A stretch of DNA of 64,000 nucleotides. It comes from an uncultured Coriobacteriaceae bacterium. Lineage in GTDB: Bacteria > Actinomycetota > Coriobacteriia > Coriobacteriales > Atopobiaceae. The translations under genes and the position numbers were made by a program. The stretch is from contig CADBJR010000001.1 of assembly GCA_902795065.1 (NCBI GenBank), positions 124,001 through 188,000 of the forward strand. Reading direction: 5' to 3'. The notes under the pieces are model-generated. The model searched no databases. It was not told the origin of the DNA and was given only the letters and a program-made list of their open reading frames with translations. Position 1 is the stretch's first letter, and the number at the start of each line of letters is the position of its first letter. Shown in pieces: positions 54,760 through 62,677 of the stretch.

Positions 54760-54841
54760 AAAAAGGCCAGGGCATATGCCCTGACCTCGAAGTTTCTGGT
54801 CGGGTGGACTGGATTCGAACCAGCGACCCCTTGACCCCCAG
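54760..54841 (-). repeat. attL: displaced tRNA 3' half with its terminator
   Basis: On the minus strand this reads from an anticodon-loop-like CTGGGGG (U33, GGG at 34-36) through stem TCAAG, variable loop GGGTC, T arm GCTGG-TTCGAAT-CCAGT and acceptor CCACCCG-A-CCA (CCA at 54797-54799). A hairpin (54764-54787) and TTTTT follow. The 5' half of the tRNA is absent here. The piece matches the right end over at least 61 identical bases. Confidence 0.8.
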
Positions 54842-54957: not shown

Positions 54958-54999
54958 TTGGTGCACGTGCACCAAGCGATTTGGTGCACGTTTGGTGCA
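54958..54999. repeat. Left cluster of TTGGTGCA sites (integrase arm sites)
   Basis: Four copies of TTGGTGCA: 54958-54965 (+), 54968-54975 (-), 54981-54988 (+) and 54992-54999 (+), immediately before the integrase gene. Five more occur at the right end. Repeats of this kind at both ends are what arm-binding sites of tyrosine integrases look like. Confidence 0.75.
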
Positions 55000-55018
55000 A
55001 GGCGAGGGGACGGATTCT

Positions 55019-56224
55019 ATGCACTTCACCAACGCGTTTATACGCGGCAAGAAGCCGCCGTTCCGCGGCGTCTTCAAGTACAAGGACAAGGACGGCGAGT
55101 GGCGCCAGACGGTGCGCACGCTCAAGGCCCAGGGCATCTCCGAGGCAAAGCGTGAGCTTGCCGAGATGAGGGTCGCGCTCGAGGAGGAGCACGAGCGAAA
55201 GATCGAGGTGGCCAGGGCCACGATGACGGTGGACGAGTACCTCGAGAGATACATCTCCGACCTCGACAGGTCCCGCTCGCTCGAGCGCTCCACCATCAAC
55301 GGCTACCGCTGCTATGCCAAGAACGTCTCCAACGGCCTCGGCAGGGTGCGCCTCTCAGAGCTCAACGCCGCCCAGGTGAGGGCGTGGGAGGCCAAGCTCC
55401 TCAAGGACGGCCTCTCGGGCACCACAGTGCGCAAGGCCCACGTCCTGCTCAAGAGCGCCTGCGAGCAGGCCGTCCAGGCGGGGATCATCCCCAGGAACCC
55501 GCTCGCCGCCGTGAGGCCCCCAAAGGCCGAGGACCCCATGCCCAACGCACTCAGCGACCGCACGAGGCGCACCCTCCTCACGTATCTCGACGCGGCGGCT
55601 GACACGCCCTTCAACCTCGCCGTCCTCATGGCGCTCTCCACGGGCATGCGGGAGGGCGAGCTCTGCGGCCTCAGATGGGCCGACGTCGACCTCAAGAACC
55701 GCACCCTCTGGGTGAGAAGGTCCGTGGCGAGGGACAACGGCAAGTACTACGTCAAGCCTCCCAAGACGCGCACGAGCGTGCGAGACATCCCCCTCACGGC
55801 AGCCATCGTCGAGAGGCTCAAAGCCAGGAAGGACGCGCAGGAGACCGAGCTCATCGTAGCGGGCCTCGAGCCCTCCGAGGAGCGCATGTCCCAGATCTAC
55901 GTCCTCGGGGAGGTCGACGGCTCATTCATGAAGCCGCACGGCCTCTGGAGGCCCTGGAAGGCGCTGGCCGACTCCATGGGGCTCGTTGGCACGCAGGGCA
56001 GGAGGCCGACCTTCCACGACCTGCGCCACACCTTCGCGACCTATGCGATCGCCGAGGGCATCGACGTCAAGACCGTGAGCTCGATCATGGGCCACGCCAA
56101 CGCCGCCATGACGCTCAACATCTACGCGAGCGCCGACGCGGACGCCAAGCGGGCGGCCGCCATGACGATCGACGAGGTCATGGGCAGGAGGCTCGCCCCG
56201 CAGGAGATCAGGAGCTTCGCATGA
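55019..56224 (+). CDS. int: Tyrosine-type site-specific integrase
   Basis: 401 aa. An N-terminal arm-binding-like region (FRGVFKYKDKDGEWRQT) and a SAM-like core-binding domain (about 65-170, MTVDEYLERYISDL) precede the catalytic domain. It has Arg in STGMREGELCGLRW, HDLRHTFATYAI (His-x2-Arg), His in MGHANAAMTLNIY and the nucleophile Tyr at its end. It integrates and excises the element at the tRNA gene. ATG 55019 is preceded by GAGGGG; a TTG further upstream lies inside the last TTGGTGCA site. Confidence 0.95.
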   Translation: MHFTNAFIRGKKPPFRGVFKYKDKDGEWRQTVRTLKAQGISEAKRELAEMRVALEEEHERKIEVARATMTVDEYLERYISDLDRSRSLERSTINGYRCYAKNVSNGLGRVRLSELNAAQVRAWEAKLLKDGLSGTTVRKAHVLLKSACEQAVQAGIIPRNPLAAVRPPKAEDPMPNALSDRTRRTLLTYLDAAADTPFNLAVLMALSTGMREGELCGLRWADVDLKNRTLWVRRSVARDNGKYYVKPPKTRTSVRDIPLTAAIVERLKARKDAQETELIVAGLEPSEERMSQIYVLGEVDGSFMKPHGLWRPWKALADSMGLVGTQGRRPTFHDLRHTFATYAIAEGIDVKTVSSIMGHANAAMTLNIYASADADAKRAAAMTIDEVMGRRLAPQEIRSFA

Positions 56225-56363: not shown

Positions 56364-56367
56364 GGTT

Positions 56368-56430
56368 GTGGTGGTGCCACCAAGGCGCTACCTCCAAGCG
56401 CCGGGGGCTTATCCCCCGGCATCTTGTTTT
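56368..56430 (+). ncRNA. Compact hairpin-rich RNA upstream of the DUF3800 gene
   Basis: Three hairpins follow one another. TGGTG/CACCA (56369-56373 with 56378-56382); GGCGCT/AGCGCC (56384-56389 with 56397-56402) with loop ACCTCCA; GGGGG/CCCCC (56403-56407 with 56413-56417), extendable by CC/GG at its base in competition with hairpin two. ATCTTGTTTT follows, so the last hairpin looks like a terminator placed 17 nt before the DUF3800 start codon. The loop CCTCC (56391-56395) can pair with the gene's GGAGG (56435-56439). Structured RNAs upstream of DUF3800 genes have been reported in other bacteria; membership in one of those motifs is not tested. Confidence 0.6.
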
Positions 56431-56446
56431 CTTGGGAGGCATATCC

Positions 56447-57121
56447 GTGCGTGAATTGTCCATCTTTGCAGATGAGAGCGGCGATAAGACCAATCACGAT
56501 CGCTATTTCCTGCTCACGCTCGTCATGCACGACCAGTCCGAACCTATCACCCGAGCTATTGGAAACTATGAGTCCCACCTCGCCCTCTCGGATCTTCCTA
56601 ACATCCCGTTTCATTCAGAACCCTTGCTAAACGGCCACGGCGACTACGAGTATCTCGACATCGCCCAGCGCAAGAACCTTCTGGTCGCGTTCAACGTCCT
56701 CGCGCAGAGGCTCCCCATACGCTATAAGACCTTCGTCTACAGGCGCAGCGAATTCGAGGACGCCTCCAAGCTCGCGGCGCGCATGAAGCGCGACATATCT
56801 GGGATGCTGTTCGACCACCTCGAGTTCTTCCAGGCCTTCGACCACGTGAAGGTCTACTACGACAACGGCCAGGCCATCGTGAAAAAAGCCCTCGACGAGT
56901 CGGTGGCCTTCGCCCTCTCAAAGCAGGCCGTCGAGAAGAGGCGAACCACCATGACCGAGTACCGCCTCGCACAGGTGGCTGACTACCTCTGCACCATCGA
57001 ACTCGCAGCGGTCAAGTATGCCGCCAAGGAGGCGGGCGGCACGTACGACAAGTTCTTTGGCGGCATCGGCTCCTTCAAGAGGAACTGGCTCAAGCAGGCG
57101 AGGCGGAAGCGTCTTGACTAG
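56447..57121 (+). CDS. DUF3800 domain protein
   Basis: 224 aa from GTG 56447 with GGGAGG upstream. The N-terminus LSIFADESGDKTNHDRYFLL is the DUF3800 signature, with acidic residues typical of an RNase H-like metal site. Later conserved-looking blocks are VKVYYDNGQAIVKKAL and LAQVADYLCTIELAAVKY. Proteins of this family are widespread on mobile DNA; they are suspected nucleases but not well characterised. Here the gene directly follows a compact structured RNA and sits between the integrase and an accessory operon, which fits a defence or addiction module. That function is inference. Confidence 0.88.
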   Translation: MRELSIFADESGDKTNHDRYFLLTLVMHDQSEPITRAIGNYESHLALSDLPNIPFHSEPLLNGHGDYEYLDIAQRKNLLVAFNVLAQRLPIRYKTFVYRRSEFEDASKLAARMKRDISGMLFDHLEFFQAFDHVKVYYDNGQAIVKKALDESVAFALSKQAVEKRRTTMTEYRLAQVADYLCTIELAAVKYAAKEAGGTYDKFFGGIGSFKRNWLKQARRKRLD

Positions 57122-57215: not shown

Positions 57216-58845
57216 TTATATCAGCCCATTTGAGATTACAAGTCCTTTTTTTGCTCCTGCCTTTTTGATGCTGCCAATCCAAGACTCATAGTCAGAGATG
57301 GACAATGGGAAGTCACTGTTCTGCGGCATGATTCCCTTCCCTCTGAGGAACGACCTCAGATTCTTGAGCTTTATGGGCCCGAGGCCGCGCATACGAGCCA
57401 GGTCTTCTCTAGTAAGACCAACGAGCTCCTCCACCCGAGTAAGACCTTGCCTCTCGAACACTCCGCGCCCGCAAATGACAGGCATCTGCAGGCTCTTGAA
57501 GCTGTCAGACCACACACTAGCACTTCCCGACGCATCAGCATGCTCATTCTCTGATGGGGTCACCATTGTGGGAGCTGGCTCGATGACGGATGCCCTGAGC
57601 TTTTCCGCGGCCGCCTTCGGGAAATCTCTCTTGGGAAGCTCCCTTGCTCTGTGAGGGCAGTAGTTGTCTTCTAAGAAGTCGATAACGTCTGGCGAAGCCA
57701 GCAAGAATGCATCGCTGCACGGATGGGCGAGACAAAGCCCCTCGATACTAGTCAGGCGGGATAGAGCTGTATAGAGCTGCCCCTCCTCCCAACAACGCGG
57801 GTAGACCAGCGCCGAGTCGAAGGTCTGCCCTTGTGCTTTGTGAATCGTTATAGCCCATGCGAGCTTGAGTGGAATCTGCTCGAACGTTCCTATTACCTCA
57901 TGCTTGGTCTTGCCATCGACAAGCTTGGGCACGGTAATCTCCCATTTATGCCGCGGCACCTCAGAGGCCCCTATGTCGTCGAAGTCAACCGTCACCATGT
58001 CACTATCGCAGGAGACGACCGTGCCGAGTGACCCATTCATGTATGAGGTCTTCGACACATTCACTAGGGCCATGACTCGTGCGCCGGGCTTAAGGATGAG
58101 CCGCTGGGCCGTGGGCATGTCCCTCTTCGTCACCTCGCCCGTTATGGCGCATGCGTATACGCGGGCCTCGCCCTGCAGCTCTTCAAGACGTTTCCGGTTC
58201 TCGCCGTCCGCCTGCTCATTTGTTCCGCAAAGGATGATGGCATTCTTCATCGGCGTCTTCGCGGCATGCTCCTCAATCCATCTTACGCCTTTCGTGTCAC
58301 CCACCCTGCATGCATTGAGTGCCGCGACGAAGCTCGAGTCTCGTTGTCGTATGGCCTCTGTGAGCTCGACCTTCTCGAACTCCCAACTCCTCCACTCTCT
58401 GCCCATGAAGGGGTAGCCCTTGCGGATGTCGAAGCCGTACTTCTCCTTGAGGATGGGCTTCTCCGCATCCGTAGTGACCGGCGGCAGCTGACAGAAGTCG
58501 CCGACCACAACGAGCTGACAGCAAGCCTTGCCCTCGGCGGCGCGTATTCCCGCCGCCTTGCGAAGCACCGATGACAGGTAGTCGAACAAGTCCAGTCGAC
58601 ACATCGAGATTTCGTCTACGATCATGAGGTCGCATTTGAGCAGTGGTGAGTCCTCGGGTATGTACGGGTATGGATCAATCTCTAAGGTGCGCTCTGGCCT
58701 GATACCTAGAGTCCTGTGGATGGTGGAGCCTCCCACATTCAGTGCGGCGATGCCCGTCGGTGCACAGACCAGGACTTCGAGACCGGTGGCCTTCGCCCAA
58801 TTGATCACGCGCTCCAGTACGTATGACTTTCCCGTGCCCCAAGGC
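57216..58845 (-). pseudogene. Pif1-like helicase part of a frameshifted BRCT-helicase gene
   Basis: About 540 codons in the frame that ends at 57216. It is a superfamily 1B helicase: Walker A GTGKSYVLERV, then VLVCAPTGIAALNVGGSTIH, Walker B DLMIVDEISMC, VVVGDFCQLPPV, and the late motifs AWAITIHKAQGQTFD and YTALSRL. The C-terminus has a helix-hairpin-helix-like segment (LTREDLARMRGLGPIKLKNL), suggesting DNA binding. This frame has no start codon suited to the domain; it joins the BRCT part upstream only if one base is restored near 58838-58845, just before Walker A. With that base the protein would be about 783 aa. The lesion may be a real mutation or a sequence error. Confidence 0.8.
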
Positions 58846-59566
58846 CAGTGAGATAGACATTTCGACCGGCCTTCACCAGGTCGAGCACTTTTTGCTGTCC
58901 GGCCGTTAGCCCTTCGAAGTCGGCCCTGACGACCTGTGCCGAGCTCCACTGCTCATGGAACCGCTCCCGCTGTCTCTCGAGCACTCCCATCGCTTTGTCG
59001 TCGTTCTCCTCGAAGAACGACATGAGCGCTCCCTCGGTTACCACTTTGACCTTACCCCTACCCGTGAGCTGAAGGTTGAGGGCGTCCTTGACCTTCCTAC
59101 CGTAGTTTCCGAATGCCCATGCAGAACTGCCTTCCGAGCCAACCACGACGTAGTCGGTCTTGCCGGACACGCTTCCCGTGACCGTGCCTCCCGCAGACTG
59201 AATCATCTTCTTGACGGTTGCTTTGCCTCCGTCAGTCGAGAAGTCGCCCGTGAGCACAACCCTCTTGCCCTCCACTTGCACGACGGGTTCGTCTGATATC
59301 GGGTTGGTCATGGCTCTTGCAAGGTCGGCAATCAGTCCGCGCTCCCGATCGTCAATGCTCCCGTCCTTGACGGCCTGCTCAAGCAGTGTGCGTAATGCGG
59401 AGACGAAGACCTCTTCGCCGTCAGGGAAGTCCCTTGCAATAACATCGAGCAGGACGTTTGCCTCTTCGATGTCGAATCCCTGGGCAAACGCTAGCTCCGA
59501 CACATCCCCAATCAGCGACTTTACCCGCTGAGTGCGCTCGCTCGTCTGCCCGTACCCGTATTGCAT
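58805..59566 (-). pseudogene. TerB-like and BRCT N-terminal part of the same frameshifted gene
   Basis: 253 aa from ATG 59566 to an early stop at 58805. Residues about 15-90 form a helical region (FDIEEANVLLDVIARDFPDG; DGSIDDRERGLIADLARAM) of the TerB-like kind often seen before BRCT domains. The BRCT domain spans about 95-190 (VEGKRVVLTGDFSTDGGKAT, then SVSGKTDYVVVGSEGSSA). Then begins the helicase start, FEGLTAGQQKVLDLVKAGRN and VYLTG, where the frame is lost. It is the third gene of the minus-strand operon, 56 bp after the BRCT-DUF285 gene. Confidence 0.8.
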
Positions 59567-59622
59567 GTTACCCCTCGATACTCGCAGATGATGTCAGCTC
59601 CATCGATTGCCGTATTATCCCG

Positions 59623-60711
59623 TCAGACCCTGCGGAGCCAGCGGCCCTGTTTGGGCGCAGTGTCGAACATGCGCGAGGTGTCGATTCGCTCGGGAATGGG
59701 CACATTGTTCTCGTCGAAAAGCACCGCCGCTGGCGAGTTCTCGAACATGGACTCCATGGTTTCGACTTTGGAGATGTCCCAACCAATGCAGTTAATGACA
59801 CGTGCGCCAATACATCCGAAGAACATCGAGCTCATGTCGGTAACGGTTGATGTCCGGAACCGATCAGTGGTCATGAAGTAGTCAACTGATGCACTTCCTC
59901 GGAACATGGCCCGCATAGTAGTTGCATTTGATGTGTCAAGTCCCAGAAGGTCGTACTCGGCACATCTCGGAAGACCGTCGAAGAGGTATGCACATGAACT
60001 GGGAGCGTAGCGGTCAGTCACAATGACCTTGCCAATGTCATTACGCCACTCAGCCCAAGGCACGGCATTCCTGTTCAGGGTGTCCATGACTATAGTGCCG
60101 TCTGGAAGACGCGTAATCGACCCAACATTGTCAGCAAACTGCTCATCACCAGACAGGAACCCACAAGCGATAATGTTCCAGCCACCGAGGCTTGTGCTCT
60201 TTGCCGAGCTGTGCTGGATGAAGAGCGTGTACGGGGCCACAGAGCCGTCCCAAGAGGGTTTGTTCTCGGTCATCGCGTTAGAACGTGCCCACGTTGCAAC
60301 TTCGCTCAGGACGCCTCTGGCCTTCTTGTCAAGGTCGCCGTCCTCTGACGCCTTTCTCAGTCGACTCTCCCAAGTACGCTGCATCGACTCCATGTTAGTG
60401 TCGACAACAACCCAGTGATCGGCAACATCTTCAGGGCCAAGCTCGATGCCGACCATCTTCCAGAACACCGTCTCACCGATTATGCCGACACCTGCCTCCC
60501 TGGCTTTGTCGACATATTTTGCCTGTCTCGTCCCATCGGCTAGCGCGTCCGTGACGACGAAATAGTCCGTACCAGATTTGACCGCATTGCTCCTGACCTC
60601 AGCGGCGGTGCCCCCGCGTTCTCGTACGAGCTCGTATCCCTCGAAGGGGTCGAGTGTCAAAAGACCGCTTGCGAACGAGAACGACCTACCCTCGATGTCT
60701 TTCCACGACAT
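59623..60711 (-). CDS. BRCT-DUF285 protein of unknown function
   Basis: 362 aa. Residues about 5-90 look like a BRCT domain (FSFASGLLTLDPFEGYEL; SGTDYFVVTDALADGT; the end GVGIIGETVFWKMVG). The C-terminal part (about 240-350) contains DUF285-type repeats (LDTSNATTMRAMFRGS; STVTDMSSMFFGCIGA; WDISKVETMESMFENS), which are usually found in surface proteins. There is no signal peptide or membrane helix, so the protein should be cytoplasmic. It starts 2 bp after the exonuclease-BRCT gene stop and is surely co-transcribed with it. Its function is not known; the repeats may form a protein-binding surface. Confidence 0.78.
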   Translation of the reverse strand: MSWKDIEGRSFSFASGLLTLDPFEGYELVRERGGTAAEVRSNAVKSGTDYFVVTDALADGTRQAKYVDKAREAGVGIIGETVFWKMVGIELGPEDVADHWVVVDTNMESMQRTWESRLRKASEDGDLDKKARGVLSEVATWARSNAMTENKPSWDGSVAPYTLFIQHSSAKSTSLGGWNIIACGFLSGDEQFADNVGSITRLPDGTIVMDTLNRNAVPWAEWRNDIGKVIVTDRYAPSSCAYLFDGLPRCAEYDLLGLDTSNATTMRAMFRGSASVDYFMTTDRFRTSTVTDMSSMFFGCIGARVINCIGWDISKVETMESMFENSPAAVLFDENNVPIPERIDTSRMFDTAPKQGRWLRRV

Positions 60712-60713
60712 GG

Positions 60714-61898
60714 CTATTCCTCACTCTCAGAGCCGTTCATAGTCGCCAGATAGTGCTCCTTGCCCTTCTGCATGTCTGCGAGATATGGCGCAAGCACGCG
60801 GAATGGCACGCCCTCACCGTCAAGGACAGCCTCAAGCGTCACCATGCCACAGTCATCACAGGTGTCGACCACGCGCACGTCAAGTACAGGTATGGTGTCG
60901 ATGATGTCCTCGTTGATTGGAACGGTTACACCAAACCTGTTCTCGTGCATGACGGTCTTTGAGCCGCTACGACGATAGTAGACAAGTGGCTTGGAGATGG
61001 GCAACCCCAGCTCCCGCTTGACCATCAACATGGTCTCCTCGCCAAGGCTAGAGAACCATGTCCCCGTCTGGAGAACGTCATAGCGCACTGGCTTATCGGT
61101 TGGATATCCAATCATCTCAAGGAACTCACGGCCCTCGATGACGCGGATGCCGTACTGATTTGCCTTGGTGACCTTGCCGCTCACGCGTCCCTCAAGGTTG
61201 ACGAGCAGGGTCACCTTCTTGGTCACGCCGTTGGAGAGCGTCGCACCATGCGCCAGACCGAGCGTTTGGCATGCACGCTTCGGGTAGAAGTCGGTCGAGC
61301 CTGTGAAGCACACGAGCTCTCCCGCCAACTCGTCGCCCATGACCTCGGCGGTTATGTCTCTGACGTCAGTTGACTCCATCGACCACTGGAGATGAATCGC
61401 ATCATAAAGCAGTCGTGTGGCACGTGCGTCTGATAGCGCCCTATGGGCCTCGTCGTTTACGATGCCATACTCATCGCAACAGCTTGCCAACGTGGCGCGC
61501 CCATGCATGAGCATCGCATCATGGGAGCCGTTGTCCACGGGGTTCCTAGTGCCAGCCCTCTCGGCCTCCCGAGCGATGAACAGGTCATCGAACCGCTGGT
61601 TATTGAACCCGACAAGAGGAAGCTGGCCAATAAACTCGCAGAAGTCGATAAACACCTCTGACAGGGATCGCTTTTCAGCCAGCATGTCATCCGTGATGTG
61701 ATTTGTCTCGCTTGCCTTCGGGTTTATTCTGCCGTTTAGAGCGCATAACTCTGAGAACTCACCCGTAACATGCCCGTCCTCGACTTTGACAGCCCCGAAC
61801 TCGATAATCTCACCCTTAGGAAAGTAATCACTGGTTTCAAGGTCGTAAGCTACGTATGACGTCGGCAAAAGAAATGCCTTCATGGTCTTCTGATACAT
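60714..61898 (-). CDS. DEDDh exonuclease-BRCT fusion
   Basis: 394 aa. Residues about 12-175 form a DnaQ-like 3'-5' exonuclease: YDLETSDYFPKGEIIEFGAV (Exo I, Asp and Glu), FNNQRFDDLFIAREA (Exo II, Asp) and HRALSDARATRLL (Exo III, His and Asp). Residues about 195-275 form a BRCT domain (LAGELVCFTGSTDFYPKRAC). The remaining 120 residues are unassigned, with a CDDC pair. This resembles the epsilon-like nuclease-BRCT proteins of mobile DNA. It is the first gene of a three-gene operon. ATG 61898 is preceded by AAGGA. Confidence 0.88.
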   Translation of the reverse strand: MYQKTMKAFLLPTSYVAYDLETSDYFPKGEIIEFGAVKVEDGHVTGEFSELCALNGRINPKASETNHITDDMLAEKRSLSEVFIDFCEFIGQLPLVGFNNQRFDDLFIAREAERAGTRNPVDNGSHDAMLMHGRATLASCCDEYGIVNDEAHRALSDARATRLLYDAIHLQWSMESTDVRDITAEVMGDELAGELVCFTGSTDFYPKRACQTLGLAHGATLSNGVTKKVTLLVNLEGRVSGKVTKANQYGIRVIEGREFLEMIGYPTDKPVRYDVLQTGTWFSSLGEETMLMVKRELGLPISKPLVYYRRSGSKTVMHENRFGVTVPINEDIIDTIPVLDVRVVDTCDDCGMVTLEAVLDGEGVPFRVLAPYLADMQKGKEHYLATMNGSESEE

Positions 61899-62069: not shown

Positions 62070-62193
62070 GCAAACGTCCGCCATCCCCGCCAATGCCGAC
62101 CACGGCTCGCACGAGACTGCCCAGACTGTCGTCTGTACTGCTCGGTGCTCGTCGCGTCGCGCTGCGGGCGGACGTTTGCGGGGGATCCCCCGC
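62070..62193 (+). other. Candidate origin of transfer (oriT) upstream of mobC
   Basis: The 314 bp between the exonuclease gene and mobC have no gene. GCAAACGTCCGCC (62070-62082) and GGCGGACGTTTGC (62167-62179) are a perfect 13-bp inverted repeat 84 bp apart. It is followed at once by the perfect palindrome GCGGGGGATCCCCCGC (62178-62193). Inverted repeats directly ahead of mobC are the usual layout of an oriT. The nick site is not identifiable by eye. Confidence 0.5.
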
Positions 62194-62212
62194 GCCCCTG
62201 GGAGGTCAGGAC

Positions 62213-62677
62213 ATGGCGGAACTCAAGCGGCTCGAGGCGAGGCTCACCGAGGGCCAGATGGCAAAGCTCAACAACATCTCGAGGAGCACGGGGCTCAACC
62301 GTACTGACGTCCTCAGGCTCCTCATCGCCAATGCCTTCGTCGATGCGGAGGGTATGCGTGAGGGAACGACCGTCGTGCTCGACCTCGTGACCATGGCTGG
62401 GCTCCTGCGGCAGACGAGGGCCATCGGTAACAACCTAAACCAGGCCACCCATGCCCTCAACAGGATCGCGAAGGCCACAGAGGGGCTCACAGCGGACCGT
62501 ACGGCGGTCCTGGACGTCATGGAGGCGCTCGCAGGCGTCAAGTACCTGCTTCAGGGATTCGAAGGCGCAAACGAGGCGGTTAGGGAGGCTGCGGAGGCAG
62601 CGTCGGGACGCCCAGGCATCTTCCTCGGGAGGCACGATGCGGAGGCCACGAACAGGTTAGAGAATGTGCCCCTCTAG
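62213..62677 (+). CDS. mobC: MobC-like relaxosome accessory protein
   Basis: 154 aa. The N-terminal ribbon-helix-helix-like region is RLEARLTEGQMAKLNNISRS with GLNRTDVLRLLI. The middle has LLRQTRAIGNNLNQATHALN, the hallmark of MobC proteins (GNNLNQ-A). MobC helps the relaxase open oriT. GGGAGG precedes ATG 62213. Normally a relaxase gene follows; here none does, so the element probably uses a helper relaxase. Confidence 0.8.
   Translation: MAELKRLEARLTEGQMAKLNNISRSTGLNRTDVLRLLIANAFVDAEGMREGTTVVLDLVTMAGLLRQTRAIGNNLNQATHALNRIAKATEGLTADRTAVLDVMEALAGVKYLLQGFEGANEAVREAAEAASGRPGIFLGRHDAEATNRLENVPL

What the first reader, a model, noticed from the sequence alone, without database searches (positions are those of the whole stretch)
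57216..61898. Three-gene operon in which every protein carries a BRCT domain
A DEDDh exonuclease-BRCT, a BRCT-DUF285 protein and a TerB-like/BRCT/Pif1-helicase protein are encoded in a row on the minus strand of a mobile element (gaps 2 and 56 bp). BRCT domains pair with each other or bind phosphoproteins and DNA ends. A shared BRCT set suggests that nuclease, helicase and adaptor form one complex on DNA. I know no named system with this composition. Possible roles are anti-phage or anti-plasmid defence, or repair of the element's own DNA.
Basis: partly seen in the sequence, partly recalled or inferred. Interest (0 to 1): 0.9.

Follow-up and report, generated by a model that had tools for sequence, protein, structure and literature searches.

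The report
BRCT-linked nuclease-helicase candidate defence operon
A gut bacterium's mobile element carries a rare operon (an exonuclease, a leucine-rich-like adaptor and a Pif1-type helicase, all with BRCT domains) that recurs next to known anti-phage genes in relatives, so it is probably an undescribed DNA-defence system, although this particular copy has a broken helicase gene.

Summary
The triplet is real. Exo (DEDDh + BRCT + an unnamed C-terminal domain) and BRCT-DUF285 are intact. An intact 769-aa orthologue exists in another genus, in the same gene order and in a related integrative mobilizable element.

The genes are rare but linked. BRCT-DUF285 occurs in 5 of 140 genomes of the host's family. 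In four of these it lies directly beside a TerB-BRCT-Pif1 gene; in the fifth it is fused to a second exo. A BRCT-less DUF285 protein sits beside the same kind of exo in two genomes of another family.

Relatives neighbour known or predicted conflict genes: MzaB-E with a cytosine methylase, GajA/GajB, GajB plus a TOTE primase, and SLFN-g3/GIY-YIG helicases (twice).

Best explanation: an anti-phage or anti-mobile-element nuclease-helicase system. BRCT domains recruit the parts to DNA ends, the helicase unwinds and the exonuclease degrades. Defence is inferred from neighbourhood only, and the mechanism from domains. Structure predictions failed. The copy in the window is probably inactive unless the deletion is an assembly error.

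The parts
60714..61898 (-). DEDDh 3'-5' exonuclease (res. ~14-167), LigA-type BRCT (~188-263), unnamed C-terminal domain (~273-394)
   Evidence: Pfam RNase_T 2e-18; ligase-type BRCT; C-terminal domain matches the N-terminus of the exo proteins in L100/L101; dN/dS 0.064 against L031
59623..60711 (-). BRCT (~res. 5-90) + middle domain + DUF285 (BspA-like leucine-rich-like repeats, res. ~242-352)
   Evidence: Pfam DUF285 1.5e-12; BRCT via orthologues and hhalign; dN/dS 0.121
58805..59566 (-). 5' part of the helicase gene: TerB-like + BRCT, up to the frameshift
   Evidence: 72% identical to the intact L031 protein
57216..58949 (-). 3' part of the helicase gene: Pif1-like SF1B core and HhH tail; true coding starts about 58838
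   Evidence: Pfam PIF1 1.8e-20; 80% identical to L031; dN/dS 0.091 after Walker A
58837..58840 (-). G4 run inside the Walker A codons where one base is missing relative to homologues
54992..56224 (+). Tyrosine integrase of the element (69% identical to the one beside the L031 triplet)
54760..54841 (.). Left copy of an 82-bp direct repeat (att); the right copy, 63924-64005, overlaps tRNA-Pro(ggg)
62093..62677 (+). MobC-like mobilization protein of the element
   Evidence: Pfam MobC 1.6e-5
56366..57121 (+). DUF3800 protein, neighbour; no match in L031, so not taken as part of the set

Best explanation
A modular nuclease-helicase conflict system, most likely against phage or other incoming DNA, carried as cargo on integrative mobilizable elements of Coriobacteriales. 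Proposed working: BRCT domains of the exo and the helicase bind DNA ends or 5'-phosphates (both keep the T/S-G...K pocket residues) and bring the proteins together; the Pif1-like helicase unwinds; the DEDDh exonuclease digests the exposed strand 3'-5'; the BRCT-DUF285 protein, a cytoplasmic leucine-rich-like repeat protein, senses a target or acts as adaptor. Shown: genes, domains, linkage, purifying selection, defence-gene neighbourhood. Inferred: complex, substrate, direction of degradation, defence. The window's own copy is probably inactive as sequenced, because the helicase is broken in Walker A.
For: The same three genes in the same order lie in a second genus beside a related integrase and a relaxase. 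BRCT-DUF285 and TerB-BRCT-Pif1 are each rare (5 and 4 of 140 genomes) yet lie side by side in all four genomes that have the full helicase. An exo with the shared extra domain pairs with a DUF285 protein in two genomes of another family, with a 1-bp overlap and an 8-bp gap. Neighbours: MzaB-E and a Dcm-type methylase (L076), GajA+GajB (L101), GajB and TOTE primase (L032), SLFN-g3/GIY-YIG helicase (L064, L074). OLD-TOPRIM genes are rare in the family, 24 matches in 140 genomes, so chance adjacency is unlikely. The exo matches the PADLOC candidate family PDC-S48 at 2.4e-29. Low dN/dS in all parts.
Against: No functional data. All defence evidence is by neighbourhood in few loci. PDC-S48 is itself only a computational candidate. 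In the window and in G134 no known defence gene adjoins the set. Three of the available helicase copies carry frame lesions (window, L064, L076). No structural model was usable. A helicase-exonuclease pair would also serve DNA repair or element transfer.
Confidence: 0.42

Rival explanations
1. DNA processing for the mobile element itself: the exo and helicase repair, replicate or mature the element's DNA during excision and transfer.
For: In the window and L031 the set lies between the integrase and the MOB genes of a tRNA-targeted element. Pif1 and DEDDh enzymes are ordinary replication and repair enzymes.
Against: Relatives in L064, L065, L101 and L032 were not seen beside a relaxase in the surveyed stretches (open frames inspected, not all scanned with profiles) and often adjoin defence genes. 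Most elements of this kind do without such genes (established knowledge).
Confidence: 0.2
2. Accessory DNA repair of the host, a BRCT-marked end-processing set comparable in role to LigA/RFC1-type BRCT enzymes, with no conflict role.
For: The BRCTs resemble NAD-ligase and RFC1 domains. Stand-alone exo-BRCT proteins are found in many genomes of the family.
Against: The set is very rare, mobile and patchy, unlike housekeeping repair.
Confidence: 0.15
3. A decaying cargo locus: the system is being lost, the broken helicase shows relaxed need, and exo plus DUF285 act alone or not at all.
For: Different frame lesions in the window, L064 and L076; L032 and L101 have exo and DUF285 without the helicase.
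Against: dN/dS 0.06-0.14 on all parts over the window-L031 split; no second lesion in the window gene. The lesions may be metagenome assembly errors.
Confidence: 0.15

Closest known systems
PDC-S48 (PADLOC single-gene phage-defence candidate: DEDDh exonuclease with C-terminal BRCT; TerB-BRCT in the family members seen here)
   Same: Exo matches at 2.4e-29; the TerB-BRCT module on our helicase is 32-46% identical to the C-terminal part of PDC-S48-like proteins in L072, L073, L075 and L144
   Different: Here TerB-BRCT is on a Pif1 helicase, not on the exo; two more genes; DUF285 partner
Gabija (GajA OLD-TOPRIM nuclease + GajB UvrD helicase)
   Same: Nuclease plus superfamily 1 helicase; lies next to our genes in L101 and GajB in L032
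   Different: Different nuclease and helicase families; no BRCT or DUF285; GajA absent from the window's set
NAD-dependent DNA ligase LigA / RFC1 BRCT domains
   Same: Sequence-similar single BRCT with T/S-G...K
   Different: No ligase or clamp-loader domains
Bacterial Pif1 helicases (e.g. PDB 8bns, 5fhd)
   Same: All core motifs, E down to 2.5e-76
   Different: Added TerB-like and BRCT N-terminus and HhH tail
GapS2 anti-phage protein (NCBIfam NF047932)
   Same: Weak match in the BRCT region of the helicase, E 9e-4
   Different: Otherwise unrelated architecture as far as tested

Membership tests
PDC-S48 | DEDDh exonuclease domain matching the profile | tested here: met
   PDLC05027 2.4e-29, res. 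14-167
PDC-S48 | Single protein carrying exo plus C-terminal region with BRCT as in the profile (TerB-BRCT in L072, L073, L075) | tested here: not met
   Window exo has BRCT directly after the exo domain and no TerB; TerB-BRCT is on the helicase
Gabija | GajA (ATPase + OLD TOPRIM) | tested here: not met
   No GajA match among window proteins; no OLD-TOPRIM match in G000
Gabija | GajB UvrD-type helicase | tested here: not met
   Window helicase is Pif1/RecD-like
Bacterial Pif1 helicase | Walker A/B and SF1B core | tested here: inconclusive
   Met in L031, L064, L065; in the window the frame breaks inside Walker A
Anti-phage defence system | Protects cells from phage or plasmid | not testable with these tools
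   Only neighbourhood evidence
BRCT-domain protein set | BRCT in all three proteins | tested here: met
   Helicase directly; exo by ligase models; DUF285 through orthologues and hhalign
BRCT-domain protein set | BRCT kept in all proteins across relatives | tested here: not met
   The DUF285 partners in L100 and L101 lack BRCT

The most novel reading that the evidence does not exclude
A previously undescribed immune system in which BRCT domains, otherwise known from DNA repair, serve as the common connector that assembles an exonuclease, a Pif1 helicase and an LRR-like sensor on invading DNA ends.
Probability: 0.15. Interest if true: 0.85.

Novelty: new variant of a known kind. Interest (0 to 1): 0.55.

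Why it matters
If it defends cells, it would add a nuclease-helicase immune system built around BRCT domains and a cytoplasmic DUF285 protein; DUF285 is otherwise known here from large surface proteins. It makes a testable case for BRCT as a connector in bacterial immunity and gives a possible role to PDC-S48-like exo-TerB-BRCT proteins. The reshuffling of exo, BRCT, TerB, Pif1 and DUF285 among loci is itself informative.

Tried and rejected
AlphaFold models of the BRCT-DUF285 protein and the exo, with three or four sequences each, came out at pLDDT 35 and were not used. The viral contig scan with the exo found nothing; with the helicase, only generic Pif1 cores without TerB-BRCT; with DUF285, only matches limited to parts of the protein at E 3e-9 or weaker, mostly the repeat region. 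Plasmid and phage searches gave surface BspA proteins and generic helicases, except scaffold MT835895. Programmed frameshifting at Walker A was considered and rejected: no canonical slippery heptamer, and all homologues are in frame there. A DUF285 match in G210 is a surface protein with a signal-like start. Paper searches found no described BRCT/Pif1/DEDDh defence system in the open library held.

Full report
What is in the sequence. The minus strand holds exo (60714-61898, 394 aa), a BRCT-DUF285 protein (59623-60711, 362 aa) and a helicase gene starting at 59566, with gaps of 2 and 56 bp. No minus-strand promoter-like site was found between them. The helicase gene is not intact: its two ORFs overlap in different frames, and the break falls in a G4 run at 58837-58840 within the Walker A codons. 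The orthologue in genome G134 (L031:5235-7544) is one ORF of 769 aa, reading LTGLGGTGKS at that place. L064, L065 and L076 are also in frame there. Whether the base is missing in the organism or only in the assembly cannot be decided here.

Domains. Exo: RNase_T 2e-18, DEDDh residues conserved, then a ligase-type BRCT and an unnamed C-terminal domain whose relative is N-terminal in the exo proteins of L100 and L101. Middle protein: DUF285 1.5e-12; the BRCT is visible in orthologues and by profile comparison. Third protein: TerB-like (weak), BRCT, Pif1 core with solved relatives, and a C-terminal HhH-like tail (Pfam HHH_5 E 0.013 in L031). In the alignments the T/S-G of the BRCT pocket and the later lysine are kept in the helicases and mostly in the exos; the DUF285 BRCT has lost the T-G. 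That this pocket binds 5'-phosphates or phosphoproteins is established knowledge of RFC1, LigA and BRCA1 BRCT domains, not a result here.

Element. An 82-bp direct repeat at 54760-54841 and 63924-64005, the latter overlapping tRNA-Pro(ggg), bounds a 9.2-kb integrated element with integrase and MobC but no relaxase ORF in the stretch read. L031 carries the triplet beside a 69% identical integrase and a relaxase. Record titles place L031 and L032 in rumen or sheep-gut Coriobacteriaceae/Atopobiaceae metagenome genomes.

Distribution. Of 140 genomes of the family, 5 have the BRCT-DUF285 protein (G000, G134, G063, G020, G056) and 4 have the TerB-BRCT-Pif1 helicase matching over its N-terminus; a fifth TerB fragment sits at a contig end in G051. 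In all four the two genes are neighbours. In L064 an exo-BRCT follows on the opposite strand. In L065 no exo adjoins. In L032 the set is an exo plus an exo-BRCT-BRCT-DUF285 fusion, without helicase. In the wider order, 397 genomes gave two more DUF285 partners, in G157 and G162, each directly beside an exo of the shared type; a search of 67 genomes of that second family found no others. A 396-genome sample of the phylum added none (its one weak hit is a surface protein), and the genome collection scan returned only L031 and L032 again. TerB-BRCT occurs in 15 of 389 genomes of the order, otherwise mostly on exo-TerB-BRCT proteins.

Neighbourhood. L076, an unverified metagenome scaffold filed as phage, has the helicase 265 bp from a C5-cytosine methylase followed by MzaE, MzaD, MzaC and MzaB homologues. 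L101 has exo-DUF285, then GajA and GajB, beside a tRNA-Arg. L032 has a GajB homologue and a TOTE primase-helicase. L064 and L074 each have a SLFN-g3 helicase with GIY-YIG, 24% identical to each other. OLD-TOPRIM genes number only 24 in 140 genomes, so adjacency within a few kilobases is not expected by chance. The sample is small and was not drawn at random.

Selection. Between window and L031, dN/dS is 0.064 (exo), 0.121 (DUF285), 0.135 (helicase N-part) and 0.091 (after Walker A), with 0.39 for the short tail. The genes have been kept under constraint, so the window lesion is recent or an artefact. Different lesions in L064 (3' of the core) and L076 (end of BRCT) hint that the helicase is often lost, or reflect metagenome errors.

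Verdict. A defence role is favoured over element maintenance or repair, on neighbourhood evidence only. The proposed mechanism (BRCT recruitment to ends, unwinding, 3'-5' digestion, DUF285 sensing) is inference. The literature searched here held no description of the combination, but the library covers only open-licence papers.

Noticed in passing
L032:9035-10960 (-): A 641-aa protein fuses a second exo-BRCT to the BRCT-DUF285 protein, downstream of a separate exo: natural evidence that the two parts work together.
   Followed up: partly
L072:6227-7408, L073:7147-8274, L075:5728-7272, L141-L146: Exo-TerB-BRCT single proteins (PDC-S48-like), found in several families of the order; their TerB-BRCT is the same module as on the Pif1 helicase.
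   Followed up: partly
L064:12981-14684 (-); L074:5058-7190 (+): SLFN-g3 helicase with GIY-YIG domain beside the TerB-BRCT(-Pif1) gene in two genomes; possibly an additional or alternative component.
   Followed up: no
L064:10469-10912; L076:980-1080: Further frame breaks in helicase orthologues, at sites different from the window's.
   Followed up: partly
window 56366-57121 (+): DUF3800 protein between the integrase and the operon; no match in the L031 element.
   Followed up: no
window 54760-64005: The element has MobC but no relaxase ORF in the stretch read, unlike the related element in L031.
   Followed up: partly
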